Assembly: GCA_907163375.1 (NCBI GenBank)
Contig: CAJQUW010005788.1
Coordinates: 62,001 to 126,000, forward strand
DNA from: Prostheceraeus crozeri
Taxonomy: Eukaryota; Platyhelminthes; Polycladida; Euryleptidae
Length of the DNA: 64,000 bases
Reading direction: 5' to 3'
The notes beneath the pieces are model-generated. The model was not told the DNA's origin. It worked only from the letters and a program-made list of their open reading frames with translations, and did no database searches. Positions 20,013 through 64,000 of the stretch are shown here, piece by piece. The stretch's first letter is position 1, and every line of letters begins with the position of its first letter. The position numbers and the translations under genes are program-made.

Positions 20013-20395
20013 AGGGCGCTTTCATGCTTGTTGCCAACTGAGATGTAGTTTTCCATGCCTGAACTTTTTCCTATCTTGAAACTGTCACTTTATATGTATA
20101 TACTTCATTTTGCATCCCACATCCCCGATATAATACAGGGCGAAAGCATCCAATCACCATTTTATCATTAAGATTAGTAGAATGTCATCCATGTAAGGTA
20201 GAAAAGGCAAAAATTACGTATCGTTAACATAATTGATCTTGACGATATTGGCAAAGGCGTGTGTGCTATCACTTGTAAAAATTGAAAGGCAATGAACGCT
20301 CCATTTAAATGTTGTTGTTTTGAGCATATGAAGATTCTTCCTGATTCTCTGCTATCTTAGGTCTCTTGTCTCACATCATCTTATTGTCCTTTCAG
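20013..20395 (+). other. Probable 5' intron or upstream region of RPP30
   Basis: No coding content. It ends in a good splice-acceptor-like tract (TTATTGTCCTTTCAG, ending at 20395) only a few bases before the RPP30 start codon, suggesting a 5' UTR intron. The upstream exon is not identified. Confidence 0.4.
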
Positions 20396-20401
20396 AATGT
20401 A

Positions 20402-41546: not shown

Positions 41547-41811
41547 GGTTGTTAAACGTCTTTTATATGCATGTAATCTTTTATGCATCTTTATTGACAT
41601 TTGATCAATATTTGATATTAGTAATAAAAGATTTAGTTAAGATTTTCTGTGTTTTTTCGCGGACCTTTTTCACCATGTTGCTTCTGTCTACATACCAGTT
41701 ACCCATTGAAATTCATGCAAGAATTGCTTTATGAGCCAGCTGATGCTGCATACAAAGTTGGGTTGAGTAATGAATACACAGAAAAAAATTAAATCTGCGT
41801 AAAACTCTGCC

Positions 41812-44223: not shown

Positions 44224-45226
44224 TTGAGTTAGTCAACAACTTACATCCCTCTATCAATTTTACTATGGAATTTAACGATAGAGAACTAAATTTTTTTTCG
44301 ATGTTTAAGTATACAAGAGTGAAAATGGTATAGAAACGGATATCTATTACAAAAAGACGAACAACTACAATTACGATCCCTTCTATTCAAGCCATCCAAC
44401 ACACACGTTGAGAAATATCCCTTTCACTTTAGCTCGTCGTATACATATGATTGTCTCTAATGATAAGGCCAAAGTAGTTCAATTACACAAACTGAAAACT
44501 ACCGGTAATTTGATAAAGCTAAAATATCCTTTAACATTAATTGACAATGCTTTTAAAAAAGCAGAAACTCATCTCTCTAAACTGGAAACAAGAACGCAAG
44601 AAAACACTGAAAGAAGCACAAAGAAAACGATATATTTTACTACTCGTTATAACAAAAACAATCCCAACATATACAACAAAGTTATTAAGCCAGCAACTGA
44701 GAGCTTAAAATTATCAAACCGGTTCATGGATTATAACTTCAAAAAATCTTATAAACAACCTCCATCTCTACTTAATCAACCTAATGTTAAAAATCGGAAA
44801 ACAATTAAAGGAATAACCAAATGTGGTGACAAACGATGTAGCTGCTGTTCCATTATCATAGAAGGTGAAACAATTAATTTCAAAAATGGTAAAATGAAAA
44901 CGTTTAAAATCAAACAAAATCTGAATTGCCTTTCCCATAACATTATTTACGCTCTATTCTGTAACGGTTGTAACAAATATTATATTGGCCAATCCGGTGA
45001 CATGTTCAGAAACCGATTAACCGTACACCAGCAACAAATTAACAACAGACATTATGCCGTATTAACAGTAAGTAAACACATTGCAAATTGCGCCAATAAT
45101 CTCGCTATTAAGTTCAGAGCAGCTCCCTTTTACCAGATGCCACCAAGTTGCAATAGGATTGCTAGGGAGAAGAAAGAAAAATATTTCATTACTATGCTTA
45201 AGCCAGACCTTAATTCTGATACGTGA
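44224..45226 (+). pseudogene. PLE family A, plus-strand partial copy (RT end and GIY-YIG)
   Basis: This copy starts inside the RT (FELVNNLHPSINFTMEFNDR) exactly where the minus-strand copy ends, head to head. It shares the same TAA in the DV*VYKSENG block (about 44307). Beyond that the reading is open to TGA at 45224: TLRNIPFTLARRIHMIV, the zinc-like CGDKRCSCC module, then the GIY-YIG nuclease. The nuclease has YALFCNGCNKYYIGQSGDMF, the Arg/His of RNRLTVHQQ and the Glu-bearing REKKEKYFITMLKPDLN. GIY-YIG endonucleases nick DNA to prime PLE reverse transcription. The domain looks complete here, but the RT is mostly missing. Confidence 0.88.

Positions 45227-46042: not shown

Positions 46043-46099
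<57 letters not shown>
46040..46099. repeat. (TA)n microsatellite at the 3' end of PLE B1
   Basis: Nearly pure TA repeats with one interruption. The 3' end of the minus-strand B1 copy (GTTCT on its sense strand) joins it directly at 46100. Confidence 0.95.
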
Positions 46100-46103
<4 letters not shown>

Positions 46104-46199
46104 CAATAATAGTAAGAACTCAGTATTTGGAAATGTATATAAAAAGTTTGAATGCAAAAAACCAAACGAATGAAACTTTCAAGAAAACTTGATTTTTCA

Positions 46200-46241
46200 G
46201 CACGAGCGCTTTCATGTATTGTGCATACAATCTTCAGGTGC
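46200..46241 (-). ncRNA. Hammerhead ribozyme motif, B1 3' region
   Basis: On the minus strand: stem I GCAC (46241-46238), core CTGAAGA, stem II TGTAT-GCACA-ATACA, GAAA, stem III palindrome AGCGCT, C at the cleavage position, then GTGC (46203-46200) closing stem I. All universally conserved core bases are present. Confidence 0.8.
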
Positions 46242-46311
46242 ATAAAAGTGACATCAAAATCTTTTTAAAATTCATATCAGTACATACATAAAAAGTTCAT
46301 AGAAATTCATG

Positions 46312-48620
46312 TTACTTGGCGTTCAGCTTGGGATGGAATAGGTCAATAAAATATCTTTCTTTAACTTTTCTAAAAATATCTGTGACATTATGCATCTTGT
46401 AAAAAGGGAAGATGGTAAAACGTCCATGGCTGCATTCATCTAAATGTTTACTTAAACTAATTTTACGGTATTCTGGAATGTTAATTTGCTCCTTGTGGAT
46501 TCTACAACGTTCTCTTATTGTGTTACCTGTTTCGCCAATATAAAACTCATTACAACTGGTACACGTAATTACATAAATGACGTTTTGAGTCGAACAATTC
46601 ATGTTATTTTTGATTTGAAATTGTTGATCATTGAAGTTGTATGTGTTACCTTCTCTCAAATAATCACATGTTCCACATCTTGCATCATTACATTTCTTTA
46701 CGAGGAAATCACTATTTGTATAAAATTTCGATTTACACAATATGCGTTTTAAATTCGATGGTTGTCGCTTGCTATTAATGAATTTTTTGCTTTCAAATAT
46801 ACATTTAGTTTGTTGATCACTTTTCAAAGTTATATTAATAGAATTAATCATTGGATATATGTTTGTGTTTCTAGGATTGTGTGTAGATATAAAGGGTATG
46901 GTAAGTGCATTGTTACTTTTCGAATTCGCGTTTAGAAGTTCAGTTCTATTTAATTCTTTAGCTCGCTTAATACCATCTGAGATAAGTTCGTCAGGGTATG
47001 CTTGTTTTTGAAGAAACGTTTTCAATTCTGAAAGACGGGACTCTTTTCGAGATTCATCATTCACAATAGTGCAGATTCTTCTGGCAAGGTTATATGGGAT
47101 GGCTCTTTTGGTATGCCTGGGATGATTGGAGTTGAAATGGAGGTATTGTTGAGTGTCTGTAGTTTTATAAAAAACATCTGTCACAACTTTGTCATTTTTC
47201 TTCATTATCAAAATATCCAAAAAAGAGATTTGTTCTTCGTTCGTTTCCATTGTAAATTGTAAATTGCAGTTCAGTTGATTAAGTATTTGATTAAAGATTC
47301 TCAATTTTTCATTGTCAAAAATCCAGATGATGAAGCAATCATCGAGATACCTCTTCCAGTTTTTCTTCACATACTCACAATCTTCTTCACCCCATAAGTT
47401 TCTTATTTTGTCATATAGTTGAATTTCTAAGTAAGCAAGGGTAAGGGTTGCATAGGTTGGGGCAACAACTGTACCCATTGCTGTACCTTTTACTTGCGCA
47501 TAAAAGTCATTTCCAAAGGAGAAATTGTTGTTTGTTAGTACCAACTTTAAACTTTCAATGATAAATTCTTGTTGAAAACGTTCATTGATAACGTTCGAAT
47601 GTAGAGATGTCCAATATTTAATTGATTCTATGCCTAAGTCATGGGGAATATTGGTGTACAAGCTCACTACATCGAAGGTAACCAGCTTGGCATTTTCATC
47701 AATGGAGTCTGGTAAGAATTTTAGGAAGTCTAAGTCATCTTTCACGAAGCTTTCTACAAATTGACATAAGGGTTTCAACAATATATCCAATAATCTACTC
47801 AAGCGTTGTGTCGGACAATTAGGACCACCAACAATTGGTCGAAAAGTCAAATCATGAGGGCTGACGTTTTGTATATACTCGGAGTTTTGTTCATTGATTG
47901 AGTTTCTGATCGATGAGGATTTATGGATTTTAGGTAGACCGTAGAAATTACTTTCTTTACTTTCGAATTTAGTTAAGTAGTCCTTTTCTTTCGTAGTAAG
48001 AGTTTGTGATATTGGGTTTTTGATTAACTTTTTTATCTTTATCATTGTTTTTCTATCGGCATCTTCATTGACTTGTGAATAGAAGTTTGAATCACTTAGC
48101 ATATTTTTGATATGCATTTCATAAAACTCTTTGTCCATAACAACTACGGCTCCTCCCTTGTCGGCTTCTTTGATAATGATGCTTTCATCAGACGATAGGC
48201 TGCGTAATGCATTTTTTTCTTTGATGCTTATATTTCCTTTTATTTTCTTTTTCCCATTGTTCAGATCAACACATTCCAATGTATCACATAATGTATCCAA
48301 CAAGTGGTTTCTCCCTCTTGGAGGATTAAAATTAGACTGATTTTGAATCAAGTTAATGCGTTTGTCACAGCTTCATGAAAAAATTCAGATAGTCTTAAAC
48401 GCCTGGTGTAAGTTTTGATATCTGTTGAAAGTTCACAATTATTTCCTCGTGGAGTAGGGGCAAATTTGAGACCTTTGGATAATAGTGTGATTTCTGCATC
48501 ATTCAATGGTCGATGAGATAGATTAATAATTTTTGGCTTCACATCAGGTATTCCATTTGTTTCTTTGTTCTCCGTTGAGGTATTCTCCTCGCAGCATTCA
48601 TCTTGCCTCCCCCTAAAAAA
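46312..48620 (-). pseudogene. PLE-B1 ORF2: reverse transcriptase and GIY-YIG, frameshifted
   Basis: From the overlap with ORF1 the frame reads NGIPDVKPKIINLSHRPLND and KGLKFAPTPRGN, then breaks at about 48351-48358 from loss of one base relative to B5. It resumes for 679 uninterrupted residues. These show KEADKGGAVVVMDKEFYEMH and NFYGLPKIHK, then RT motifs TFDVVSLYTNIPHDLGIE and GTAMGTVVAPTYATLTLAY, and the catalytic YLDDCFIIW at about 47350. Next come LARRICTIV, the Cys module CNDARCGTCDYL, and the GIY-YIG nuclease VIYVITCTSCNEFYIGETGN. Its Arg/His helix is IRERCRIHKEQ and its Glu block is KERYFIDLFHPKLN. All catalytic residues survive; only the deletion disables it. Confidence 0.92.
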
Positions 48621-49762
48621 TGATTTTGGGGGTGTTGAATATGAAGATTTTGAGGATTCTCATTTCTTGCATGTTCGGCATCATACTGGTTTCGTGAGTT
48701 CAAACGAGTAGGTGGATACATGTAAGTTTGAGATACATGTGTAGGCTGGTATCGACGAGAATAGCGTTGATGTTGATAATTGAATTCACCTTGTCGGTAT
48801 CGATGATCTCTGTTTGTTGAGCCATGATAATTTCGAATTGGTTTGTTTGGATTTGTCTTTTGGAAGTTTCGTGAATTATATTGATAGTTGTATTGTCGTC
48901 TATTATAATTTGGTTGAAATTGATTTTGCATGCTGTTTTTAACTACAGATGCATAAGTCTTCCTCTCACTTGGTGCAGTATAGTTCATGCTGTCATTATT
49001 ACGAGATTTAATCGTGTCTGTTCCATAACGTCTTTCATAATCTAGTAGCCAGGACTCAGTATATCTCCAGCGGTTGTATGAGACATTTTCTTCCTTTTTA
49101 CAGTCGATTGACCACATTTGTAATAACATTTCATTGACAATCCCTGTTGAAGAATTATTTATGATGTTGATCATTTCATAGTCACAATCATTCACATCTT
49201 TCAAGTGTTTTTCTGATCTTGAGTAAAGAATTTGAATTTCACCATTCATTCTTTGTATTGCAACACTTGTTCGAATTTTGTTTTCCTCTTTCGGTTCATT
49301 TTTGATATGTTTCATTCTGAATTTCATTGGAAGCACTGGATTTTCTCTGTCCACCCAATTTTCATACATTTGAGCCATCCGCTCATTGCGTAACTTGTGC
49401 CAATAGGACATTTTTCGCTTTTCGAGATAATCTTGCCACTCGTACATCATTTTCATTTTGATCTTCTCCGCTTCTCTTTTTAGAGTTAACTCGTTGACTT
49501 CACTTTGAATTTGTTGTTGTTGAATTATAGTTTTTGATTCTTCTAGTTGTTTGGCTTGAGTGGGAGAGTGAATTTCTTCATTTTCCTTCTGCTCATGTTC
49601 ATTGCATTTCTTCTGATTCAAAATCTCACATAGAAGTTCATTTGTAGTTATTATTTTGTCAATGATAATATTCATTTTATTCATCATTGTTTCAAAATAT
49701 TCCTTCTCATCCTTTTCCTTTTTTGAGCTGTCACTGTTTGCTTTTCGTTGATTTTTTGTCAT
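48539..49762 (-). CDS. PLE-B1 ORF1, nucleocapsid-like protein
   Basis: 407 residues from ATG 49762. Residues 1-105 are charged and Q/E/K-rich with coiled-coil character. Residues about 105-250 form a conserved W/Y/E-containing region (MMYEWQDYLEKRKMSYWHKL, then MAQMYENWVDRENPVLPMKF). Residues about 285-385 are strongly basic and N/Q/R/Y-rich (NYNRRQYNYQYNSRNF), as in single-strand nucleic acid binders. I know no family name for it. By position and composition I infer that it coats the element RNA. The stop overlaps the ORF2 frame, and the slippery heptamer lies 26 codons before the stop. Copies B2 and B5 encode essentially the same protein. Confidence 0.8.
   Translation of the reverse strand: MTKNQRKANSDSSKKEKDEKEYFETMMNKMNIIIDKIITTNELLCEILNQKKCNEHEQKENEEIHSPTQAKQLEESKTIIQQQQIQSEVNELTLKREAEKIKMKMMYEWQDYLEKRKMSYWHKLRNERMAQMYENWVDRENPVLPMKFRMKHIKNEPKEENKIRTSVAIQRMNGEIQILYSRSEKHLKDVNDCDYEMINIINNSSTGIVNEMLLQMWSIDCKKEENVSYNRWRYTESWLLDYERRYGTDTIKSRNNDSMNYTAPSERKTYASVVKNSMQNQFQPNYNRRQYNYQYNSRNFQKTNPNKPIRNYHGSTNRDHRYRQGEFNYQHQRYSRRYQPTHVSQTYMYPPTRLNSRNQYDAEHARNENPQNLHIQHPQNHFLGGGKMNAARRIPQRRTKKQMEYLM
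48614..48620 (-). promoter_or_regulatory. -1 frameshift slippery site, B1
   Basis: T TTT TTA on the minus strand, with TTT and TTA as zero-frame ORF1 codons, followed by GGG GGA. C5 upstream and G5 downstream form an inverted repeat around it. It lies inside the ORF1/ORF2 overlap. Confidence 0.7.
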
Positions 49763-49884
49763 CGCAAATACTGGTAATGAATACAGAACAATAATAGTAA
49801 GAACTCAGTATTTGGAAATGTATATAAAAAGTTTGAATGCAAAAAACCAAACGAATGAAACTTTCAAGAAAACTTGATTTTTCA

Positions 49885-49926
49885 GCACGAGCGCTTTCAT
49901 GTATTGTGCATACAATCTTCAGGTGC
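49885..49926 (-). ncRNA. Hammerhead ribozyme motif, B2 3' region
   Basis: Same structure and bases as in B1: GCAC/GTGC stem I (49926-49923 with 49888-49885), CTGAAGA, TGTAT/ATACA, GAAA, AGCGCT palindrome. It is located about 123 nt upstream of the B1 ORF1 start codon. Confidence 0.8.
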
Positions 49927-49996
49927 ATAAAAGTGATATCAAAATCTTTTTAAAATTCATATCAGTACATACATAAAAAGTTCATAGAAATTCATG

Positions 49997-52306
49997 TTAC
50001 TTGGCGTTCAGCTTGGGATGGAATAGGTCAATAAAATATCTTTCTTTAACTTTTCTAAAAATATCTGTGACATTATGCATCTTGTAAAAAGGGAAGATGG
50101 TAAAACGTCCATGGCTGCATTCATCTAAATGTTTACTTAAACTAATTTTACGGTATTCTGGAATGTTAATTTGCTCCTTGTGGATTCTATAACGTCCTCT
50201 TATTGTGTTACCTGTTTCGCCAATATAAAACTCATTACAACTGGTACACGTAATTACATAAATGACGTTTTGAGTCGAACAATTCATGTTATTTTTGATT
50301 TGAAATTGTTGATCATTGAAGTTGTATGTGTTACCTTCTCTCAAATAATCACATGTTCCACATCTTGCATCATTACATTTCTTTACGAGGAAATCACTAT
50401 TTGTATAAAATTTCGATTTACACAATATGCGTTTTAAATTCGATGGTTGTCGCTTGCTATTAATGAATTTTTTGCTTTCAAATATACATTTAGTTTGTTG
50501 ATCACTTTTCAAAGTTATATTAATAGAATTAATCATTGGATATATGTTTGTGTTTCTAGGATTGTGTGTAGATATAAAGGGTATGGTAAGTGCATTGTTA
50601 CTTTTCGAATTCGCGTTTAGAAGTTCAGTTCTATTTAATTCTTTAGCTCGCTTAATACCATCTGAGATAAGTTCGTCAGGGTATGCTTGTTTTTGAAGAA
50701 ACGTTTTCAATTCTGAAAGACGGGACTCTTTTCGAGATTCATCATTCACAATAGTGCAGATTCTTCTGGCAAGGTTATATGGGATGGCTCTTTTGGTATG
50801 CCTGGGATGATTGGAGTTGAAATGGAGGTATTGTTGAGTGTCTGTAGTTTTATAAAAAACATCTGTCACAACTTTGTCATTTTTCTTCATTATCAAAATA
50901 TCCAAAAAAGAGATTTGTTCTTCGTTCGTTTCCATTGTAAATTGTAAATTGCAGTTCAGTTGATTAAGTATTTGATTAAAGATTCTCAATTTTTCATTGT
51001 CAAAAATCCAGATGATGAAGCAATCATCGAGATACCTCTTCCAGTTTTTCTTCACATACTCACAATCTTCTTCACCCCATAAGTTTCTTATTTTGTCATA
51101 TAGTTGAATTTCTAAGTAAGCAAGGGTAAGGGTTGCATAGGTTGGGGCAACAACTGTACCCATTGCTGTACCTTTTACTTGCGCATAAAAGTCATTTCCA
51201 AAGGAGAAATTGTTGTTTGTTAGTACCAACTTTAAACTTTCAATGATAAATTCTTGTTGAAAACGTTCATTGATAACGTTCGAATGTAGAGATGTCCAAT
51301 ATTTAATTGATTCTATGCCTAAGTCATGGGGAATATTGGTGTACAAGCTCACTACATCGAAGGTAACCAGCTTGGCATTTTCATCAATGGAGTCTGGTAA
51401 GAATTTTAGGAAGTCTAAGTCATCTTTCACGAAGCTTTCTACAAATTGACATAAGGGTTTCAACAATATATCCAATAATCTACTCAAGCGTTGTGTCGGA
51501 CAATTAGGACCACCAACAATTGGTCGAAAAGTCAAATCATGAGGGCTGACGTTTTGTATATACTCGGAGTTTTGTTCATTGATTGAGTTTCTGATCGATG
51601 AGGATTTATGGATTTTAGGTAGACCGTAGAAATTACTTTCTTTACTTTCGAATTTAGTTAAGTAGTCCTTTTCTTTCGTAGTAAGAGTTTGTGATATTGG
51701 GTTTTTGATTAACTTTTTTATCTTTATCATTGTTTTTTCTATCGGCATCTTCATTGACTTGTGAATAGAAGTTTGAATCACTTAGCATATTTTTGATATG
51801 CATTTCATAAAACTCTTTGTCCATAACAACTACGGCTCCTCCCTTGTCGGCTTCTTTGATAATGATGCTTTCATCAGACGATAGGCTGCGTAATGCATTT
51901 TTTTCTTTGATGCTTATATTTCCTTTTATTTTCTTTTTCCCATTGTTCAGATCAACACATTCCAATGTATCACATAATGTATCCAACAAGTGGTTTCTCC
52001 CTCTTGGAGGATTAAAATTAGACTGATTTTGAATCAAGTTAATGCGTTTGTCACAGCTTCATGAAAAAATTCAGATAGTCTTAAACGCCTGGTGTAAGTT
52101 TTGATATCTGTTGAAAGTTCACAATTATTTCCTCGTGGAGTAGGGGCAAATTTGAGACCTTTGGATAATAGTGTGATTTCTGCATCATTCAATGGTCGAT
52201 GAGATAGATTAATAATTTTTGGCTTCACATCAGGTATTCCATTTGTTTCTTTGTTCTCCGTTGAGGTATTCTCCTCGCAGCATTCATCTTGCCTCCCCCT
52301 AAAAAA
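49997..52306 (-). pseudogene. PLE-B2 ORF2: RT and GIY-YIG, two frameshifts
   Basis: Same domain order as B1 with YLDD and GIY-YIG residues retained. It shares the one-base deletion near 52040. It has an additional inserted base in a T-run near 51731-51737, so the reading splits into pieces of 127 and 594 residues. A private substitution in the nuclease helix gives IRGRYRIHKEQ. Confidence 0.9.
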
Positions 52307-53448
52307 TGATTTTGGGGGTGTTGAATATGAAGATTTTGAGGATTCTCATTTCTTGCATGTTCGGCATCATACTGGTTTCGTGAGTTCAAACGAGTAGGTG
52401 GATACATGTAAGTTTGAGATACATGTGTAGGCTGGTATCGACGAGAATAGCGTTGATGTTGATAATTGAATTCACCTTGTCGGTATCGATGATCTCTGTT
52501 TGTTGAGCCATGATAATTTCGAATTGGTTTGTTTGGATTTGTCTTTTGGAAGTTTCGTGAATTATATTGATAATTGTATTGTCGTCTATTATAATTTGGT
52601 TGAAATTGATTTTGCATGCTGTTTTTAACTACAGATGCATAAGTCTTCCTCTCACTTGGTGCAGTATAGTTCATGCTGTCATTATTACGAGATTTAATCG
52701 TGTCTGTTCCATAACGTCTTTCATAATCTAGTAGCCAGGACTCAGTATATCTCCAGCGGTTGTATGAGACATTTTCTTCCTTTTTACAGTCGATTGACCA
52801 CATTTGTAGTAACATTTCATTGACAATCCCTGTTGAAGAATTATTTATGATGTTGATCATTTCATAGTCACAATCATTCACATCTTTCAAGTGTTTTTCT
52901 GATCTTGAGTAAAGAATTTGAATTTCACCATTCATTCTTTGTATTGCAACACTTGTTCGAATTTTGTTTTCCTCTTTCGGTTCATTTTTGATATGTTTCA
53001 TTCTGAATTTCATTGGAAGCACTGGATTTTCTCTGTCCACCCAATTTTCATACATTTGAGCCATCCGCTCATTGCGTAACTTGTGCCAATAGGACATTTT
53101 TCGCTTTTCGAGATAATCTTGCCACTCGTACATCATTTTCATTTTGATCTTCTCCGCTTCTCTTTTTAGAGTTAACTCGTTGACTTCACTTTGAATTTGT
53201 TGTTGTTGAATTATAGTTTTTGATTCTTCTAGTTGTTTGGCTTGAGTGGGAGAGTGAATTTCTTCATTTTCCTTCTGCTCATGTTCATTGCATTTCTTCT
53301 GATTCAAAATCTCACATAGAAGTTCATTTGTAGTTATTATTTTGTCAATGATAATATTCATTTTATTCATCATTGTTTCAAAATATTCCTTCTCATCCTT
53401 TTCCTTTTTTGAGCTGTCACTGTTTGCTTTTCGTTGATTTTTTGTCAT
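52225..53448 (-). CDS. PLE-B2 ORF1, nucleocapsid-like protein
   Basis: Intact 407-residue frame, identical in translation to B1 ORF1 as far as I compared: an N-terminal coiled coil, a W/Y-rich middle and a basic N/R/Y-rich tail. The T TTT TTA heptamer is at 52306-52300, in the same phase. Because the ORF is intact in B1, B2 and B5 while ORF2 is broken in B1 and B2, several copies could supply ORF1 protein. Confidence 0.8.
   Translation of the reverse strand: MTKNQRKANSDSSKKEKDEKEYFETMMNKMNIIIDKIITTNELLCEILNQKKCNEHEQKENEEIHSPTQAKQLEESKTIIQQQQIQSEVNELTLKREAEKIKMKMMYEWQDYLEKRKMSYWHKLRNERMAQMYENWVDRENPVLPMKFRMKHIKNEPKEENKIRTSVAIQRMNGEIQILYSRSEKHLKDVNDCDYEMINIINNSSTGIVNEMLLQMWSIDCKKEENVSYNRWRYTESWLLDYERRYGTDTIKSRNNDSMNYTAPSERKTYASVVKNSMQNQFQPNYNRRQYNYQYNSRNFQKTNPNKPIRNYHGSTNRDHRYRQGEFNYQHQRYSRRYQPTHVSQTYMYPPTRLNSRNQYDAEHARNENPQNLHIQHPQNHFLGGGKMNAARRIPQRRTKKQMEYLM
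52300..52306 (-). promoter_or_regulatory. -1 frameshift slippery site, B2
   Basis: T TTT TTA in ORF1 phase on the minus strand, followed by GGGGGAGG, identical to B1 and B5. Confidence 0.7.
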
Positions 53449-53570
53449 CGCAAATACTGGTAATGAATACAGAACAATAATAGTAAGAACTCAGTATTTG
53501 GAAATGTATATAAAAAGTTTGAATGCAAAAAACCAAACGAATGAAACTTTCAAGAAAACTTGATTTTTCA

Positions 53571-53612
53571 GCACGAGCGCTTTCATGTATTGTGCATACA
53601 ATCTTCAGGTGC
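53571..53612 (-). ncRNA. Hammerhead ribozyme motif, B3 3' region
   Basis: Identical to the B1 and B2 motif (GCAC/GTGC, CTGAAGA, TGTAT/ATACA, GAAA, AGCGCT). It lies about 123 nt upstream of the B2 ORF1 ATG. Confidence 0.8.
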
Positions 53613-53682
53613 ATAAAAGTGATATCAAAATCTTTTTAAAATTCATATCAGTACATACATAAAAAGTTCATAGAAATTCATG

Positions 53683-54762
53683 TTACTTGGCGTTCAGCTT
53701 GGGATGGAATAGGTCAATAAAATATCTTTCTTTAACTTTTCTGAAAATATCTGTGGCATTATGCATCTTGTAAAAAGGGAAGATGGTAAAACGTCCATGG
53801 CTGCATTCATCTAAATGTTTACTTAAACTAATTTTACGGTATTCTGGAATGTTAATTTGCTCCTTGTGGATTCTACAACGTTCTCTTATTGTGTTACCTG
53901 TTTCGCCAATATAAAACTCATTACAACTGGTACACGTAATTACATAAATGACGTTTTGAGTCGAACAATTCATGTTATTTTTGATTTGAAATTGTTGATC
54001 ATTGAAGTTGTATGTGTTACCTTCTCTCAAATAATCACATGTTCCACATCTTGCATCATTACATTTCTTTACGAGGAAATCACTATTTGTATAAAATTTC
54101 GATTTACACAATATGCGTTTTAAATTCGATGGTTGTCGCTTGCTATTAATGAATTTTTTGCTTTCAAATATACATTTAGTTTGTTGATCACTTTTCAAAG
54201 TTATATTAATAGAATTAATCATTGGATATATGTTTGTGTTTCTAGGATTGTGTGTAGATATAAAGGGTATGGTAAGTGCATTGTTACTTTTCGAATTCGC
54301 GTTTAGAAGTTCAGTTCTATTTAATTCTTTAGCTCGCTTAATACCATCTGAGATAAGTTCGTCAGTGTATGCTTGTTTTTGAAGAAACGTTTTCAATTCT
54401 GAAAGACGGGACTCTTTTCGAGATTCATCATTCACAATAGTGCAGATTCTTCTGGCAAGGTTATATGGGATGGCTCTTTTGGTATGCCTGGGATGATTGG
54501 AGTTGAAATGGAGGTATTGTTGAGTGTCTGTAGTTTTATAAAAAACATCTGTCACAACTTTGTCATTTTTCTTCATTATCAAAATATCCAAAAAAGAGAT
54601 TTGTTCTTCGTTCGTTTCCATTGTAAATTGTAAATTGCAGTTCAGTTGATTAAGTATTTGATTAAAGATTCTCAATTTTTCATTGTCAAAAATCCAGATG
54701 ATGAAGCAATCATCGAGATACCTCTTCCAGTTTTTCTTCACATACTCACAATCTTCTTCAGG
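53683..54762 (-). pseudogene. PLE-B3 ORF2 3' part (YLDD to GIY-YIG)
   Basis: Open from the truncation point to the TAA at 53683, about 359 residues. It includes YLDDCFIIW, the Cys module and a complete GIY-YIG nuclease. Fingers and most of the palm are missing. Private changes include AYTDELI (others AYPDELI). Confidence 0.9.
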
Positions 54763-55717
54763 AATACCTGATGTGAAGCCAAATATTATTAATCTATCTC
54801 ATCGACCATTGAATGATGCAGAAATCACACTATTATCCAAAGGTCTCAAATTTGCCCCTACTCCACGAGGAAATAATTGTGAACTTTCAACAGATATCAA
54901 AACTACACCAGGCGTTTAAGACTATCTGAATTTTTTTCATGAAGCTGTGACAAACGCATTAACTTGATTCAAAATCAGTCTAATTTTAATCCTCCAAGAG
55001 GGAGAAACCACTTGTTGGATACATTATGTGATACATTGGAATGTGTTGATCTGAACAATGGGAAAAAGAAAATAAAAGGAAATTAAGCATCAAAGAAAAA
55101 AATGCATTACGCAGCCTATCGTCTGATGAAAGCATCATTATCAAAGAAGCCGACAAGGGAGGAGCCGTAGTTGTTATGGACAAAGAGTTTTATGAAATGC
55201 ATATCAAAAATATGCTAAGTGATTCAAACTTCTATTCACAAGTCAATGAAGATGCCGATAGAAAAACAATGATAAAGATAAAAAAGTTAATCAAAAACCC
55301 AATATCACAAACTCTTACTACGAAAGAAAAGGACTACTTAACTAAATTCGAAAGTAAAGAAAGTAATTTCTACGGTCTACCTAAAATCCATAAATCCTCA
55401 TCGATCAGAAACTCAATCAATGAACAAAACTCCGAGTATATACAAAACGTCAGCCCTCATGATTTGACTTTTCGACCAATTGTTGGTGGTCCTAATTGTC
55501 CGACACAACGCTTGAGTAGATTATTGGATATATTGTTGAAACCCTTATGTCAATTTGTAGAAAGCTTCGTGAAAGATGACTTAGACTTCCTAAAATTCTT
55601 ACCAGACTCCATTGATGAAAATGCCAAGCTGGTTACCTTCGATGTAGTGAGCTTGTACACCAATATTCCCCATGACTTAGGCATAGAATCAATTAAATAT
55701 TGGACATCTCTACATTC
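54763..55717 (+). pseudogene. PLE-B4 ORF2, 5'-truncated first part
   Basis: Begins at GGAATACCTGATGTG, the ORF1/ORF2 overlap, in head-to-head contact with B3. Encodes the PLE N-terminal motifs and the RT up to SLYTNIPHDLGIESIKYW, where family C is inserted. Several indels relative to B5 disrupt it: loss of T near 54905, an added T near 54934, the shared deletion near 54957, and a 1-base loss near 55085. It is therefore older or unconstrained. Confidence 0.9.
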
Positions 55718-55830
55718 AGGATGGCCGCCAACAGGAGGTTCTTCATACTTCAGTTGATGCCAAAAACAGCTTTCGTCTCTCCTTGAAATTTATTGACCAG
55801 ATTAAAATAGTTAATTAAAAGATATGTACG

Positions 55831-55870
55831 ACCCCTACGCGTTTCGAGCGTTTGCTCTTCCTCAGGGGGT
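55831..55870 (-). ncRNA. Hammerhead ribozyme motif, PLE C full-unit 3' region
   Basis: Minus strand: stem I ACCCC (55870-55866) with GGGGT (55835-55831), core CTGAGGA, an extra A, stem II GAGC-AAAC-GCTC, GAAA, stem III palindrome ACGCGT, A at the cleavage position. The core is complete. The single A bulge before stem II is shared by both C copies. Confidence 0.8.
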
Positions 55871-55947
55871 AATTCGCTAAAAACCAACTGATCTGGCCGT
55901 TCATGTGGGCTGCTTATATACGTACAGTGCTAACGGTCGAGAGATGT

Positions 55948-58587
55948 TTAAAATACCGTCAACTCTTTTCTTCGATTGATTTTTGGAATCAACTGTTTAA
56001 TGTAACGAGCTTCAGTCAGTCTAGTGTCCAATGCATCTTTGCACTTATCAAGAATTTCAAGGTCAAAGTCAGTCAAACGTTTTGATCTACATTTCAGACA
56101 ATGTTCTGCCATAGCACTCGAATCAACATTACCTTTATCTACAGCACGCTTGTGTTCATTAAAACGATGCTTAAAAGGACGCGAGGTTTGACCAATATAG
56201 AAATCTTTACAATGATGGCATGTAAATTTGTATACCAAAAACCGATCTGTACACTTCATCTTATTAGGCAAACTCTCACAAACAAGGCAACTTTCGTGTT
56301 TTTCTACTTTTTGTTTGAATTTCAAGGCATTATATAAAGTTTTATTAGGGGAGCTAACAAGATTTATCGGTAACTCGTATTTTTTAATTAATTTGCGGAT
56401 ATCACGATCAGTTTTATCGTTAACAAATCCGAGTTTTAAATATGTATTGTTTTTACGTATTTCTTTGCATCTTTTACTACTTTTCTTATGTTTTCGTTTC
56501 ATTGAAAATCCATTTTTACTTAATTTAGTTTCAAGTTTATTAAAAGCTACCTTGCAATTAGCTTCGTTGCTACATCTTCTCTTTACGTAGTTGATGCTGT
56601 TATTTACGTAATTGTTTTTGATATGGTTAGGCACGTAACTATCGCTGCGCAGTGAAATACCCGAATGTATTTCTTTCTCAAACCATTTATAATTCATACT
56701 GCCTTCTTTCACCGTGATGCTTATGTCCAAGAAATTAAGTGTAAGGTTTTTTGGAACTTCCAGAGTAAATTCAATATTCTCATCGATGCCATTAAAAGTC
56801 CTTAATATTACATCAAAGTCGAAGTCTTTGTCAAAGGGACCCATAATTACGTCATCAATGTATCGAGCATAAATGCTTGGAGATATATTGTGCTGTGATT
56901 TCAAAAGTTGCAGAGCTTTACTTTCAATGCTATGCATAAACAAAACCGCAAAAGGCGGACTAAAATGGGCTCCCATAGGACAGCCTTTAATTTGAAGGTA
57001 ATTTTTGCCATTATATTCGATCTCGTAGTTAAAACATACAAACTTGAGCATTTTTTCAATTGATTCTAAATCAATGCCAAAGTTATTTATTTTGTTCCAA
57101 TTTTCCTTCGTAAACTCTATGACTGCCACAATAGCATCCATGATCGGTATACTTGGGTATAGATTTTTCACATCTAAGGATATAAAAGTTGAATTTTCAG
57201 TTATTGGGAAGTTATTGCTGTTTAACCGCTCAATAAGATTTTCAGTGTTTGTGATGTGTGAAGGGACTAAGGTCATAAGTTGAGACACGATTTTGCTCAA
57301 TAACCAGTCTACTTTTTCCGTGGGATTATTTATGCATGAGGCGATCGGCCGCAAAGGATAGACTCCGTTATTTGCCATTTTATGATCTTTCAACGTAGTC
57401 CTAAAAGTGGCTGGTTCTGTACCACAACTTAGTAATTTCTCGATTTCTTGTTTTTTTAGATTATTTTTGCAAACTGATCTAATAATTACATTAGCCTGGG
57501 TTTCTAACTTTGCGACGCTAGACTTTTTTAGCTTTTTGTAGGTATTTTCATCATTCAATATCTCTTCGGTGCTTTTTGTCAACGTTTCTCTTTCAATGAC
57601 TTGTAGTCTGTTAGTCTTATCTGTAGGAACCACAGTAAGGTCATTTTGTTCTAGAAACTTACGAGAAACAATTATATCTTTTTGAATTTGCTTGTTTTGC
57701 TGTTTCTGAGACTGTATTAGCTTCATCACCTCAGCACGAAAAAGCTGTAGATTAGTTTCTTGGTTTTCGTTCATTCTAGGAGGCAAATTAACTTTATTCT
57801 TACTAAATGGAACACTTATGTTCCCCTCATCCGAGCAATCATTTTCAAACACTGTACTCCATCTCATACGATAAGTAAGCTTGTCTAACTCTTTTTCAAC
57901 ATCACTAACAAAGTGTTTGTTAACAATATGAGGCACTCTGAATTTAGGACCTTTTTCCAAAAGGCTATTAAGAGTTGACGGTATCTTATCATCTCCACCT
58001 AAGGAAACAGACTCATCGAAAACAAGACTAGTTCTCAAATGCTCCGAAGAAGGACACAGAAAGTCATCCTCGTACTGAAAAGGAAAAGTAGGAGCTCCAT
58101 CAACACGGCACTTCTTGAGAGGTACAGGATACACTTCTCCACCAGTGATAGCACTCCACTTCTTTGTATGGGTCTCGTAGGTTTCATTCTCCAGCCGTCT
58201 CACCGCCGTCTCCAGCTTCTTGAGAAATTCTTGGACTTCTTCTGGCTTCCAACTCCGAACCAGGTGAAGATACCCATATCCTCTTCTCGCTTCTTGATCT
58301 TCTTTCTTACGTTGTAATTCCCTCATTTGAGTACGTAGGACTTCTTTCTCCAAATTGATTTTCTTTCTCTATATAGCTTCTGTCCACTTCGATAGATCGG
58401 GAACTTTGACCGCCGCGCACTTGGGAACCACATTGTGGGACAGGCATGCCGCAATGAACGCAGTGTTGAGTTGGTTTTTCACGTATTTCACTTGATCATT
58501 TGCGAATTGGATCACGTTAGATCTTGACCATAGGTTCTGATCAACGGTATTGACATACAGGATGGCCGCCAACAGGAGGTTCTTCAT
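55948..58587 (-). pseudogene. PLE family C polyprotein: RT and GIY-YIG, one in-frame TAG
   Basis: From ATG 58587 the frame reads MKNLLLAAIL, then FANDQVKYVKNQLNTAF and SHNVVPKCAAVKVPDL, a typical PLE N-terminal region. It meets TAG at 58369-58371 and then continues open for about 806 codons to TGA/TAA near 55948; the first ATG after the TAG is at 58326. Later motifs: VVPTDKTNRLQVIERE, TTLKDHKM, LRPIASCINNPTEKVDWLLS, RT SLDVKNLYPSIPIMD, KGCPMGAHFSPPFAVLF and catalytic YARYIDDVIMGPF (about 56860). At the end come the Cys pair CLVCES, the nuclease VYKFTCHHCKDFYIGQTS, the Arg/His helix and Glu in TEARYIKQLIPKIN. It is diverged from A and B and belongs to another PLE lineage. Only the TAG separates it from a full ORF. 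Confidence 0.9.
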
Positions 58588-59217
58588 ACTTCAGTTGATG
58601 CCAAAAACAGCTTTCGTCTCTCCTTGAAATTTATTGACCAGATTAAAATAGTTAATTAAAAGATATGTACAACCCCTACGCGTTTCGAGCGTTCGCTCTT
58701 CCTCAGGGGGTAATTCGCTAAAAACCAACTGATCTGGCCGTTCATGTGGGCTGCTTATATACGTACAGTGCTAACGGTCGAGAGATGTTTAAAATACCGT
58801 CAACTCTTTTCTTCGATTGATTTTTGGAATCAACTGTTTAATGTAACGAGCTTCAGTCAGTCTAGTGTCCAATGCATCTTTGCACTTATCAAGAATTTCA
58901 AGGTCAAAGTCAGTCAAACGTTTTGATCTACATTTCAGACAATGTTCTGCCATAGCACTCGAATCAACATTACCTTTATCTACAGCACGCTTGTGTTCAT
59001 TAAAACGATGCTTAAAAGGACGCGAGGTTTGACCAATATAGAAATCTTTACAATGATGGCATGTAAATTTGTATACCAAAAACCGATCTGTACACTTCAT
59101 CTTATTAGGCAAACTCTCACAAACAAGGCAACTTTCGTGTTTTTCTACTTTTTGTTTGAATTTCAAGGCATTATATAAAGTTTTATTAGGGGAGCTAACA
59201 AGCTAACAAGAGAGCTA
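58559..59217 (-). mobile_element. PLE family C, 5'-truncated upstream unit
   Basis: Contains the last 125 or so codons of the C polyprotein (58789 to about 59166, from KFKQKVEKHESCLVCES to the end) and the complete 3' region with hammerhead. In the minus direction it precedes the full unit and ends with the sequence that includes that unit's start codon. Near-identical to the same part of the full unit. Confidence 0.92.
58672..58711 (-). ncRNA. Hammerhead ribozyme motif, PLE C upstream unit
   Basis: ACCCC/GGGGT stem I (58711-58707, 58676-58672), CTGAGGA, bulged A, GAGC-GAAC-GCTC stem II, GAAA, ACGCGT palindrome. Only a loop base differs from the other C copy. It lies about 85 nt upstream of the ATG at 58587. 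Confidence 0.8.
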
Positions 59218-59231
59218 ACATCTCTACATTC

Positions 59232-60516
59232 GAACGTTATCAATGAACGTTTTCAACAAGAATTTATCATTGAAAGTTTAAAGTTGGTACTAACAAACAA
59301 CAATTTCTCCTTTGGAAATGACTTTTATGCGCAAGTAAAAGGTACAGCAATGGGTACAGTTGTTGCCCCAACCTATGCAACCCTTACCCTTGCTTACTTA
59401 GAAATTCAACTATATGACAAAATAAGAAACTTATGGGGTGAAGAAGATTGTGAGTATGTGAAGAAAAACTGGAAGAGGTATCTCGATGATTGCTTCATCA
59501 TCTGGATTTTTGACAATGAAAAATTGAGAATCTTTAATCAAATACTTAATCAACTGAACTGCAATTTACAATTTACAATGGAAACGAACGAAGAACAAAT
59601 CTCTTTTTTGGATATTTTGATAATGAAGAAAAATGACAAAGTTGTGACAGATGTTTTTTATAAAACTACAGACACTCAACAATACCTCCATTTCAACTCC
59701 AATCATCCCAGGCATACCAAAAGAGCCATCCCATATAACCTTGCCAGAAGAATCTGCACTATTGTGAATGATGAATCTCGAAAAGAGTCCCGTCTTTCAG
59801 AATTGAAAACGTTTCTTCAAAAACAAGCATACCCTGACGAACTTATCTCAGATGGTATTAAGCGAGCTAAAGAATTAAATAGAACTGAACTTCTAAACGC
59901 GAATTCGAAAAGTAACAATGCACTTACCATACCCTTTATATCTACACACAATCCTAGAAACACAAACATATATCCAATGATTAATTCTATTAATATAACT
60001 TTGAAAAGTGATCAACAAACTAAATGTATATTTGAAAGCAAAAAATTCATTAATAGCAAGCGACAACCATCGAATTTAAAACGCATATTGTGTAAATCGA
60101 AATTTTATACAAATAGTGATTTCCTCGTAAAGAAATGTAATGATGCAAGATGTGGAACATGTGATTATTTGAGAGAAGGTAACACATACAACTTCAATGA
60201 TCAACAATTTCAAATCAAAAATAACATGAATTGTTCGACTCAAAACGTCATTTATGTAATTACGTGTACCAGTTGTAATGAGTTTTATATTGGCGAAACA
60301 GGTAACACAATAAGAGGACGTTGTAGAATCCACAAGGAGCAAATTAACATTCCAGAATACCGTAAAATTAGTTTAAGTAAACATTTAGATGAATGCAGCC
60401 ATGGACGTTTTACCATCTTCCCTTTTTACAAGATGCATAATGTCACAGATATTTTCAGAAAAGTTAAAGAAAGATATTTTATTGACCTATTCCATCCCAA
60501 GCTGAACGCCAAGTAA
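59232..60516 (+). pseudogene. PLE-B4 ORF2, second part after the C insertion
   Basis: Resumes at GAACGTTATC exactly where B4 was interrupted. It is open to TAA at 60516: GTAMGTVVAPTYATL, YLDDCFIIW, Cys module CGTCDYL and a complete GIY-YIG nuclease ending HPKLNAK. Before the insertion and the upstream indels it belonged to the same gene as 54763-55717. Confidence 0.92.
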
Positions 60517-60750
60517 CATGAATTTCTATGAACTTTTTATGTATGTACTGATATGAATTTTAAAAAGATTTTGATGTCACTTTTATGCACCTGAAGATTG
60601 TATGCACAATATATGAAAGCGCTCGTGCTGAAAAATCAAGTTTTCTTGAAAGTTTCATTCGTTTGGTTTTTTGCATTCAAACTTTTTATATACATTTCCA
60701 AATACTGAGTTCTTACTATTATTGTTCTATATTCATTACCAGTATTTGCG
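60517..60750 (+). promoter_or_regulatory. pLTR-like junction between B4 and B5
   Basis: The 234 nt between the B4 ORF2 stop and the B5 ORF1 ATG combine the B4 3' region (to about 60728) and a 22-nt B5 leader. It contains a hammerhead motif (60587-60628) and a TATA-like TTTATATA at 60685-60692. The same junction recurs at 49763-49996 and 53449-53682. In PLEs this repeated region is thought to act as a promoter; that role here is inference. Confidence 0.5.
60587..60628 (+). ncRNA. Hammerhead ribozyme motif, B4 3' region / B5 leader
   Basis: GCAC (60587-60590), CTGAAGA (60591-60597), stem II TGTAT/ATATA with one G-T wobble, GAAA (60615-60618), AGCGCT (60618-60623), C at 60624 as cleavage base, GTGC (60625-60628). 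Confidence 0.78.
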
Positions 60751-61974
60751 ATGACAAAAAATCAACGAAAAGCAAACAGTGACAGCTCAAAAAAGGAAAA
60801 GGATGAGAAGGAATATTTTGAAACAATGATGAATAAAATGAATATTATCATTGACAAAATAATAACTACAAATGAACTTCTATGTGAGATTTTGAATCAG
60901 AAGAAATGCAATGAACATGAGCAGAAGGAAAATGAAGAAATTCACTCTCCCACTCAAGCCAAACAACTAGAAGAATCAAAAACTATAATTCAACAACAAC
61001 AAATTCAAAGTGAAGTCAACGAGTTAACTCTAAAAAGAGAAGCGGAGAAGATCAAAATGAAAATGATGTACGAGTGGCAAGATTATCTCGAAAAGCGAAA
61101 AATGTCCTATTGGCACAAGTTACGCAATGAGCGGATGGCTCAAATGTATGAAAATTGGGTGGACAGAGAAAATCCAGTGCTTCCAATGAAATTCAGAATG
61201 AAACATATCAAAAATGAACCGAAAGAGGAAAACAAAATTCGAACAAGTGTTGCAATACAAAGAATGAATGGTGAAATTCAAATTCTTTACTCAAGATCAG
61301 AAAAACACTTGAAAGATGTGAATGATTGTGACTATGAAATGATCAACATCATAAATAATTCTTCAACAGGGATTGTCAATGAAATGTTACTACAAATGTG
61401 GTCAATCGACTGTAAAAAGGAAGAAAATGTCTCATACAACCGCTGGAGATATACTGAGTCCTGGCTACTAGATTATGAAAGACGTTATGGAACAGACACG
61501 ATTAAATCTCGTAATAATGACAGCATGAACTATACTGCACCAAGTGAGAGGAAGACTTATGCATCTGTAGTTAAAAACAGCATGCAAAATCAATTTCAAC
61601 CAAATTATAATAGACGACAATACAACTATCAATATAATTCACGAAACTTCCAAAAGACAAATCCAAACAAACCAATTCGAAATTATCATGGCTCAACAAA
61701 CAGAGATCATCGATACCGACAAGGTGAATTCAATTATCAACATCAACGCTATTCTCGTCGATACCAGCCTACACATGTATCTCAAACTTACATGTATCCA
61801 CCTACTCGTTTGAACTCACGAAACCAGTATGATGCCGAACATGCAAGAAATGAGAATCCTCAAAATCTTCATATTCAACACCCCCAAAATCATTTTTTAG
61901 GGGGAGGCAAGATGAATGCTGCGAGGAGAATACCTCAACGGAGAACAAAGAAACAAACGGAATACCTGATGTGA
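60751..61974 (+). CDS. PLE-B5 ORF1, nucleocapsid-like protein
   Basis: 407 residues from ATG 60751, as in B1 and B2 with one change near the C-terminus (KKQTEYLM instead of KKQMEYLM). Coiled-coil N-terminus, W/Y-rich middle, basic N/Q/R/Y-rich tail. It is followed in the -1 frame by an unbroken ORF2, so B5 is the best candidate for an active family B copy. Upstream lies the B4 3' region with hammerhead and TATA-like sequence. Confidence 0.82.
   Translation: MTKNQRKANSDSSKKEKDEKEYFETMMNKMNIIIDKIITTNELLCEILNQKKCNEHEQKENEEIHSPTQAKQLEESKTIIQQQQIQSEVNELTLKREAEKIKMKMMYEWQDYLEKRKMSYWHKLRNERMAQMYENWVDRENPVLPMKFRMKHIKNEPKEENKIRTSVAIQRMNGEIQILYSRSEKHLKDVNDCDYEMINIINNSSTGIVNEMLLQMWSIDCKKEENVSYNRWRYTESWLLDYERRYGTDTIKSRNNDSMNYTAPSERKTYASVVKNSMQNQFQPNYNRRQYNYQYNSRNFQKTNPNKPIRNYHGSTNRDHRYRQGEFNYQHQRYSRRYQPTHVSQTYMYPPTRLNSRNQYDAEHARNENPQNLHIQHPQNHFLGGGKMNAARRIPQRRTKKQTEYLM
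61893..61899 (+). promoter_or_regulatory. -1 frameshift slippery site, B5
   Basis: T TTT TTA; codons 61894-61896 (TTT) and 61897-61899 (TTA) are in ORF1 phase, followed by GGG GGA GGC. The -1 frame is open from 61854 (after a TGA at 61851-61853) to the window end. CCCCC at 61881-61885 and GGGGG at 61900-61904 bracket the site. Confidence 0.75.
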
Positions 61975-64000
61975 AGCCAAAAATTATTAATCTATCTCAT
62001 CGACCATTGAATGATGCAGAAATCACACTATTATCCAAAGGTCTCAAATTTGCCCCTACTCCACGAGGAAATAATTGTGAACTTTCAACAGATATCAAAA
62101 CTTACACCAGGCGTTTAAGACTATCTGAATTTTTTCATGAAACTGTGACAAACGACATTAACTTGATTCAAAATCAGTCTAATTTTAATCCTCCAAGAGG
62201 GAGAAACCACTTGTTGGATACATTATGTGATACATTGGAATGTGTTGATCTGAACAATGGGAAAAAGAAAATAAAAGGAAATATAAGCATCAAAGAAAAA
62301 AATGCATTACGTAGCCTATCGTCTGATGAAAGCATCATTATCAAAGAAGCCGACAAGGGAGGAGCCGTAGTTGTTATGGACAAAGAGTTTTATGAAATGC
62401 ATATCAAAAATATGCTAAGTGATTCAAACTTCTATTCACAAGTCAATGAAGATGCCGATAGAAAAACAATGATAAAGATAAAAAAGTTAATCAAAAACCC
62501 AATATCACAAACTCTTACTACGAAAGAAAAGGACTACTTAACTAAATTCGAAAGTAAAGAAAGTAATTTCTACGGTCTACCTAAAATCCATAAATCCTCA
62601 TCGATCAGAAACTCAATCAATGAACAAAACTCCGAGTATATACAAAACGTCAGCCCTCATGATTTGACTTTTCGACCAATTGTTGGTGGTCCTAATTGTC
62701 CGACACAACGCTTGAGTAGATTATTGGATATATTGTTGAAACCCTTATGTCAATTTGTAGAAAGCTTCGTGAAAGATGACTTAGACTTCCTAAAATTCTT
62801 ACCAGACTCCATTGATGAAAATGCCAAGCTGGTTACCTTCGATGTAGTGAGCTTGTACACCAATATTCCCCATGACTTAGGCATAGAATCAATTAAATAT
62901 TGGACATCTCTACATTCGAACGTTATCAATGAACGTTTTCAACAAGAATTTATCATTGAAAGTTTAAAGTTGGTACTAACAAACAACAATTTCTCCTTTG
63001 GAAATGACTTTTATGCGCAAGTAAAAGGTACAGCAATGGGTACAGTTGTTGCCCCAACCTATGCAACCCTTACCCTTGCTTACTTAGAAATTCAACTATA
63101 TGACAAAATAAGAAACTTATGGGGTGAAGAAGATTGTGAGTATGTGAAGAAAAACTGGAAGAGGTATCTCGATGATTGCTTCATCATCTGGATTTTTGAC
63201 AATGAAAAATTGAGAATCTTTAATCAAATATTTAATCAACTGAACTGCAATTTACAATTTACAATGGAAACGAACGAAGAACAAATCTCTTTTTTGGATA
63301 TTTTGATAATGAAGAAAAATGACAAAGTTGTGACAGATGTTTTTTATAAAACTACAGACACTCAACAATACCTCCATTTCAACTCCAATCATCCCAGGCA
63401 TACCAAAAGAGCCATCCCATATAACCTTGCCAGAAGAATCTGCACTATTGTGAATGATGAATCTCGAAAAGAGTCCCGTCTTTCAGAATTGAAAACGTTT
63501 CTTCAAAAACAAGCATACCCTGACGAACTTATCTCAGATGGTATTAAGCGAGCTAAAGAATTAAATAGAACTGAACTTCTAAACGCGAATTCGAAAAGTA
63601 ACAATGCACTTACCATACCCTTTATATCTACACACAATCCTAGAAACACAAACATATATCCAATGATTAATTCTATTAATATAACTTTGAAAAGTGATCA
63701 ACAAACTAAATGTATATTTGAAAGCAAAAAATTCATTAATAGCAAGCGACAACCATCGAATTTAAAACGCATATTGTGTAAATCGAAATTTTATACAAAT
63801 AGTGATTTCCTCGTAAAGAAATGTAATGATGCAAGATGTGGAACATGTGATTATTTGAGAGAAGGTAACACATACAACTTCAATGATCAACAATTTCAAA
63901 TCAAAAATAACATGAATTGTTCGACTCAAAACGTCATTTATGTAATTACGTGTACCAGTTGTAATGAGTTTTATATTGGCGAAACAGGTAACACAATAAG
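61893..64000 (+). CDS. PLE-B5 ORF2: reverse transcriptase and GIY-YIG (runs off window)
   Basis: From the slippery site the -1 frame is open for more than 700 codons to the window edge. It keeps HETVTNDINLIQNQSNF uninterrupted where B1, B2 and B4 have a one-base deletion. Order: INLSHRPLND...KGLKFAPTP, KEADKGGAVVVMDKEFY, NFYGLPKIHK, RPIVGGPNCPTQRLSR and RT motif TFDVVSLYTNIPHDLG. Then come GTAMGTVVAPTYATL, catalytic YLDDCFIIW (about 63164-63190), LARRICTIV, Cys module CNDARCGTCDYL and the start of the nuclease (TSCNEFYIGETGN at the edge). No ATG occurs in this frame until about 62376, so fusion by frameshifting is favoured. PLE RTs copy the element RNA at nicks made by the nuclease. Confidence 0.9.

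What the first reader, a model, noticed from the sequence alone, without database searches (positions are those of the whole stretch)
61851..61974. HIV-type slippery heptamer joins a capsid-like ORF1 to the RT of a Penelope-like element
Seen: in family B, ORF1 and ORF2 overlap, with ORF2 in the -1 frame. The overlap opens after a TGA at 61851-61853 and closes at the ORF1 stop at 61972-61974. T TTT TTA at 61893-61899 is in exact zero-frame phase, followed by GGGGG, and sits in a C5/G5 inverted repeat. ORF2 has no ATG near its start. The same site is at 48620-48614 and 52306-52300. Known: T TTT TTA is a classical -1 ribosomal frameshift heptamer of retroviruses, and PLEs are usually described with a single RT/EN ORF or separately initiated ORFs. 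Inferred: ORF1 and RT-EN are made at a fixed ratio by frameshifting, a Gag-Pol-like strategy in a PLE. Caveats: copies are near-identical, so this is one observation; I could not find a convincing downstream pseudoknot by eye.
Basis: partly seen in the sequence, partly recalled or inferred. Interest (0 to 1): 0.88.

Follow-up and report, generated by a model that had tools for sequence, protein, structure and literature searches.

The report
Likely frameshift in Penelope-like retrotransposon
A mobile element of an animal genome, of the Penelope-like kind, probably makes its reverse transcriptase by letting ribosomes slip back one base near the end of a first gene, as retroviruses do; protein relatives support the site, but the slip itself has not been measured.

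Summary
In family B, ORF1 (60751-61974) overlaps an RT/GIY-YIG ORF in the -1 frame. T TTT TTA (61893-61899) is the only canonical in-phase heptamer in the open overlap; ORF2's first in-frame ATG (62376) lies inside RT. The two minus-strand copies share the site but have a broken ORF2.

New evidence: ORF1 relatives have tails only 15-25% identical to the window's, yet FLGGGK, encoded at the heptamer, is invariant in the 8 (of 9) that reach it, and ORF1 ends 14-22 residues later. An oyster RT protein starts RRRQTE after its M, the -1 reading of GGGKPN. None of the 120 listed RT relatives is long enough to be an ORF1-RT fusion.

Against: no relative's DNA could be read; no downstream hairpin or pseudoknot was found; TTTTTTAG|G also resembles a 3' splice site; many more distant relatives have a possible ORF2 start; family A keeps an N-rich stretch in frame with RT. 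ORF1 is predicted as long helices plus a disordered basic tail; 'capsid-like' has no support. Best reading: programmed -1 frameshifting in a PLE lineage, about 0.65.

The parts
60751..61974 (+). ORF1, 407 aa: long-helix N-terminal part (about residues 3-247) and an N/R/Q-rich tail predicted disordered
   Evidence: relatives P0001-P0009
61854..64000 (+). ORF2 in the -1 frame, RT domain; most of the GIY-YIG part lies beyond the window end in this copy
   Evidence: complete C-terminus with GIY-YIG seen in the minus-strand copies
61854..61974 (+). overlap open in both frames
61893..61899 (+). T TTT TTA heptamer, zero-frame phase (proposed -1 frameshift site)
61891..61911 (+). codons of HFLGGGK; FLGGGK invariant in the 8 of 9 relatives that reach it
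61881..61904 (+). C5/G5 inverted repeat around the heptamer, probably not conserved
   Evidence: fold; relatives' residues
61980..61997 (+). KIINLS, start of the conserved ORF2 N-terminal block
61899..61901 (+). rival reading: possible 3' splice site TTTTTTAG|G, exon from 61901
   Evidence: rank 4 of 112 AG sites in 60450-62450
48539..49762 (-). ORF1 of copy 1; heptamer at 48620-48614
46312..48351 (-). RT/EN frame of copy 1, cut off from the overlap by a one-base deletion
52225..53448 (-). ORF1 of copy 2; heptamer at 52306-52300; its ORF2 is broken at two places

Best explanation
Family B is a two-ORF Penelope-like retrotransposon. Ribosomes translate ORF1, a long-helix protein with a basic, disordered tail that probably binds the element's RNA. 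At T TTT TTA, which begins 79 nt before the ORF1 stop codon, a fraction slip back one base and continue in the -1 frame, giving an ORF1-RT-EN fusion (my estimate about 1,150 aa) beside a majority of ORF1 protein alone. Shown: the frames, the heptamer and its phase, no ORF2 ATG before the RT domain, and conservation of the encoded block in relatives. Inferred: the slip, its rate, the fusion's use, and ORF1's role.
For: Heptamer in phase in the open overlap; T TTT TTA in the last 40 codons in 0.0008 of codon shuffles. Nine ORF1 relatives found; 8 of 9 reach the C-terminus and all 8 carry [HY]FLGGGK (4 H, 4 Y; P0002/P0005 and P0006/P0008 are close pairs, so about 6 lineages). The tail upstream is only 15-25% identical to the window's, and ORF1 ends 14-22 residues after the block. 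FLGGGK makes up 6 of the 9 invariant tail positions over these 9 rows, in a stretch predicted disordered. P0019 (Saccostrea cucullata, 54% identical to the RT query) begins MRRRQTE, with KVINLS 29 residues after the first R against 27 in the window; RRRQTE is what GGGKP[NSK] can give in the -1 frame (25 of 5,000 shuffles over 51 segments, pattern chosen after seeing it). FFR, the -1 reading of TTTTTTAGR, is in P0062 and P0099 (1 of 5,000 shuffles reach two; also post hoc). None of the 120 listed RT relatives (of 1,005 matches) exceeds 899 aa, though by the tool's length rule fusions up to about 1,251 aa were eligible. The four closest RT relatives, P0010-P0013, have no called start ahead of the conserved block.
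Against: No relative's nucleotides were seen, so FLGGGK could be conserved as a peptide. Four downstream segments fold no better than shuffles (z -1.3 to +1.1), and a crude H-type pseudoknot scan found none. Any canonical heptamer in the last 40 codons is common (20.6% of shuffles). The M before RRRQTE in P0019 means that gene model either has ATG there or was spliced; either weakens it as a slip-site witness. Many more distant RT relatives show a possible start close ahead of the block: 68 of 120 align with a first residue ahead of KIINLS, some of these by misplacement. Family A (38% identical over 235 columns) has its RT frame open about 75 codons upstream to the inversion junction, with the other two frames closed. 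Two of the three local copies have a broken ORF2.
Confidence: 0.65

Rival explanations
1. An intron joins the frames: TTTTTTAG|G is a 3' splice site, and spliced RNA encodes either a shortened ORF1-RT fusion or RT with a start codon from an upstream exon, while unspliced RNA makes ORF1.
For: PLEs can keep introns (PMC3846280, passages). The AG at 61899-61900 ranks 4 of 112 by a simple weight matrix and has the right phase for some donors. The oyster model P0019 starts MRRRQTE, which fits an exon ending ATGAG joined at this acceptor (inference).
Against: The two strongest donors in ORF1 (61724, 61544; scores 7.8, 7.5) are in the wrong phase for 61901; compatible donors are weak, best 3.9. The best in-phase pairs overall use an acceptor at 62068 (10.4 against 8.9 for 61901), which would cut out the conserved KIINLS block. 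The stretch before 61901 holds AAAA in the window, and relatives encode His, Asn, Lys or Tyr there, which makes a poor pyrimidine tract. Splicing does not explain GGGK conserved after the site.
Confidence: 0.13
2. ORF2 is made separately: re-initiation at the ORF1 stop, internal entry, or a non-AUG start such as the GTG at 61971.
For: The ORF1 stop overlaps ATGTGAAG and a GTG in the ORF2 frame. Many more distant relatives have a possible start 1-31 residues before the conserved block.
Against: The ATG at the stop is in the ORF1 frame, and the first ATG in the ORF2 frame is inside RT. It does not explain the invariant block at the heptamer.
Confidence: 0.13
3. FLGGGK is a peptide motif of ORF1 with its own function; the heptamer is a by-product and local ORF2 copies are decaying frames.
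For: Protein conservation alone cannot separate this. Two of three copies have a broken ORF2. CAT TTT TTA has a chance of about 0.12 given HFL.
Against: The block sits in a predicted disordered, fast-changing tail. RT frames without a called start ahead of the conserved block are seen in other families too, though called starts depend on the gene caller.
Confidence: 0.06
4. Transcriptional slippage at the T6 run adds a base to some RNAs, giving the same fusion.
For: A T6 run lies at the site.
Against: T6 is short for slippage by RNA polymerase II (recalled), and the phase and trailing A fit tandem codon slip better.
Confidence: 0.03

Closest known systems
Canonical Penelope-like elements with a C-terminal GIY-YIG endonuclease
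   Same: RT followed by GIY-YIG, head-to-tail tandem units of about 3,686 nt
   Different: described with a single ORF (PMC3846280 and PMC11167929, passages); here an upstream ORF1 overlaps RT in the -1 frame
Gag-Pol -1 frameshifting of retroviruses and LTR retrotransposons
   Same: U UUU UUA is the HIV shift site, and 28 of 51 surveyed animal elements had pol in the -1 frame (PMC5009743, passages)
   Different: not an LTR element; ORF1 matches no Pfam family; no downstream structure found
Athena/Terminon PLEs of bdelloid rotifers
   Same: PLEs with extra ORFs, some coiled-coil (PMC6431247 and PMC5408684, passages)
   Different: endonuclease-deficient and telomeric; no -1 ORF1-RT overlap is described in the passages seen
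LINE-1-like ORF1/ORF2 organisation
   Same: helical ORF1 with a nucleic-acid-binding look ahead of RT (recalled analogy)
   Different: L1 ORFs do not overlap; ORF2 is separately initiated (recalled)

Membership tests
Penelope-like element (C-terminal EN) | reverse transcriptase domain | tested here: met
   PF00078 above cut-off
Penelope-like element (C-terminal EN) | GIY-YIG endonuclease after RT | tested here: met
   PF01541 above cut-off at residues 590-676 of the copy 1 frame
Penelope-like element (C-terminal EN) | tandem / pseudo-LTR arrangement | tested here: met
   head-to-tail copies at 3,685-3,686 nt spacing; pseudo-LTR ends not mapped
Penelope-like element (C-terminal EN) | hammerhead ribozyme in the terminal repeat | tested here: inconclusive
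   no Rfam hammerhead match up to E 1 in the window; not universal in PLEs (recalled)
Programmed -1 ribosomal frameshifting | X XXY YYZ heptamer in zero-frame phase in an open -1 overlap | tested here: met
Programmed -1 ribosomal frameshifting | conservation of the site in diverged relatives | tested here: inconclusive
   encoded residues invariant in the 8 of 9 relatives that reach it; nucleotides not available
Programmed -1 ribosomal frameshifting | downstream stimulatory structure | tested here: inconclusive
   no significant fold in four segments, no pseudoknot by a crude scan without positive control
Programmed -1 ribosomal frameshifting | fusion protein produced at a defined ratio | not testable with these tools
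   needs reporter, profiling or mass spectrometry
Gag / capsid protein | capsid fold or Zn knuckle | tested here: inconclusive
   no Pfam family for the window's ORF1; fold searches

The most novel reading that the evidence does not exclude
A whole lineage of mollusc PLEs has evolved a Gag-Pol-like expression strategy: an RNA-binding ORF1 protein made in excess and an ORF1-RT-EN fusion made by conserved -1 frameshifting at T TTT TTA GG, in a retroelement class related to telomerase rather than to retroviruses.
Probability: 0.5. Interest if true: 0.75.

Novelty: new variant of a known kind. Interest (0 to 1): 0.62.

Why it matters
PLEs are described as single-ORF elements with an RT related to telomerase (passages). 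A conserved frameshift would mean that the ORF1:RT ratio matters for them too, that the RT is tethered to a probably RNA-binding partner, and that retroviral-type recoding arose or spread outside LTR elements. It could also explain why called RT starts fall inside the conserved block in many sequences. I found no report of PLE frameshifting in the held library; the main recent PLE survey (Craig 2021) is not held, so this absence is weak.

Tried and rejected
Relatives' DNA: the search for related loci on viral contigs and genome contigs, and tblastn of P0010 on plasmids and phages, gave no relative. A DNA pattern scan gave 22 viral contigs; tblastn with the nine ORF1 relatives showed no match better than E 0.13.

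C5/G5 hairpin as a stimulator: folds well alone (z -2.2) and within 61860-61980 (z -2.1), but it would enclose the heptamer, and the relatives lack the Pro codon that makes the C run. Rejected as conserved.

P0106 (VVVVFRRRTPQRR) could be a -1 reading of FLGGG, but the match is loose; not counted.

Full report
What is there. The window end holds a tandem unit (3,685-3,686 nt spacing) of a Penelope-like element, family B. ORF1 runs 60751-61974; the RT frame is -1 relative to it, opens after TGA 61851-61853 and stays open to the window end. RT and GIY-YIG domains are recognised by Pfam in the minus-strand copies, in that order. T TTT TTA at 61893-61899 is in zero-frame phase and followed by GGGGG; the 12-mer occurs three times, once per copy, against 0.01 expected.

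Chance. ORF1 has three canonical in-phase heptamers: two A-rich ones near its start and this one. Of 20,000 codon shuffles, 0.08% put T TTT TTA in the last 40 codons, 4.3% put any canonical heptamer in the open -1 tail, and 20.6% put any canonical heptamer in the last 40 codons. Given HFL, this codon choice has a chance of 0.12. So the window alone is suggestive only.

Copies. Over 60517-64000 the three copies differ at 11 sites. Copies 1 and 2 lack one base at the place equivalent to 62155, 262 nt after the start of the heptamer; copy 2 also has one extra base. Their RT frames are therefore disconnected from the overlap, and only copy 3 is open. The copies count as one observation.

Relatives of ORF1. 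Two searches of 5.8 billion proteins gave nine ORF1 relatives (sources jgi, ena, lgn; hosts not given). Eight reach the C-terminus, and all eight carry FLGGGK after H (4) or Y (4). P0009 ends before the region. The tail before the block is 15-25% identical to the window's, against 41-60% in residues 95-252. FLGGGK supplies six of nine invariant tail positions. ORF1 ends 14-22 residues later. The model puts residues 250-407 at pLDDT below 50. An invariant six-residue block exactly over the heptamer, in a disordered fast-changing tail, is what a nucleotide constraint would look like; a peptide motif cannot be ruled out without DNA.

Relatives of ORF2. Of 1,005 matches, 120 were listed. Named hosts among these are oysters (Saccostrea) and mussels (Mytilus), plus bacterial records of clam symbionts that I take to be host contamination (inference). 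The block KIINLS..GLKFTPTP is conserved, with nothing conserved before it by eye. By alignment, 52 of 120 called starts lie within or after KIINLS and 68 before it, though some of the 68 are misplaced, for example P0010 and P0011. Called starts depend on the gene caller. The four closest, P0010-P0013, have no called start ahead of the block. The longest of the 120 is 899 aa; a fusion of about 1,150 aa (my estimate) would have been eligible, so none of those listed is ORF1 in frame with RT. No FLGGG or LGGGK occurs in the first 200 residues of any of the 120.

A junction read from protein alone. GGN GGN GGN AAR CCN AAY read in -1 gives [RWG]x3 [QKE] [TA] [QKE]. P0019 of Saccostrea cucullata starts M-RRRQTE and has KVINLS 29 residues after the first R, against 27 in the window. 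One such match in 51 segments was reached by 25 of 5,000 shuffles; FFR in P0062 and P0099 was reached by 1 of 5,000; the looser [RWG]x3[QKE] was reached by 1,070 of 5,000. I chose these patterns after looking at the sequences, so the figures flatter the result. P0099 looks like a gene model with an unrelated upstream piece (inference). The M of P0019 may be a real ATG or come from a predicted splice at TTTTTTAG|G; the DNA would tell.

Structure. Four downstream segments fold no better than shuffles (z -1.3 to +1.1); two segments that include the C5/G5 hairpin fold better (z -2.1 and -2.2). A crude H-type pseudoknot scan found none; it had no positive control.

Splicing. Slightly better in-phase pairs (10.4 against 8.9) use an acceptor at 62068, which would remove the conserved block. 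PLEs can keep introns (PMC3846280, passages), so splicing is the main rival.

Counter-case in the window. Family A, 38% identical over 235 columns, has its RT frame open for about 75 codons upstream of the block, through an N-rich stretch, to the inversion junction near 44220, with the other frames closed. Its 5' end is lost there, so it either fuses ORF1 and RT in one frame or shifts further upstream.

ORF1. The model of residues 1-255 (mean pLDDT 82.6) is long helices; the 155-residue tail has 26 K/R against 8 D/E. An RNA-binding, oligomerising role is inferred. 'Capsid-like' is not supported.

Literature. Passages were seen in PMC3846280, PMC11167929, PMC5408684, PMC5009743, PMC9033089, PMC8969392 and PMC6431247; other papers only as search listings. 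In those passages PLEs are single-ORF elements, or carry accessory ORFs in Terminons. No PLE frameshift was found, with the limits stated above.

Verdict. Observation confirmed; -1 frameshifting is the best reading at about 0.65, with splicing and separate initiation at about 0.13 each.

Noticed in passing
41688-45226: Family A PLE fragments in an inverted arrangement (arms 42068-42709 / 44220-44861); its RT frame continues upstream through an N-rich stretch, unlike family B.
   Followed up: partly
46043-46100: A (TA)29 microsatellite directly abuts the end of the minus-strand family B array.
   Followed up: no
46096-64000: Family B copies lie in two opposite tandem clusters (minus 46096-54760, plus 59218-64000), nearly identical, so probably recently formed.
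   Followed up: partly
55948-58353: A third, different PLE frame of 801 aa with RT and a GIY-YIG match below the Pfam cut-off; no ORF of 150 aa or more is listed directly upstream.
   Followed up: no
20366-21430: An uninterrupted 354-aa ORF covering the whole RNase P subunit p30 domain (PF01876), a host gene or a copy of one.
   Followed up: no
27590-29776; 35027-35872; 3784-5064: Other likely mobile elements: a DUF4371 protein, a DDE_Tnp_1_7 transposase, and a separate reverse transcriptase.
   Followed up: no
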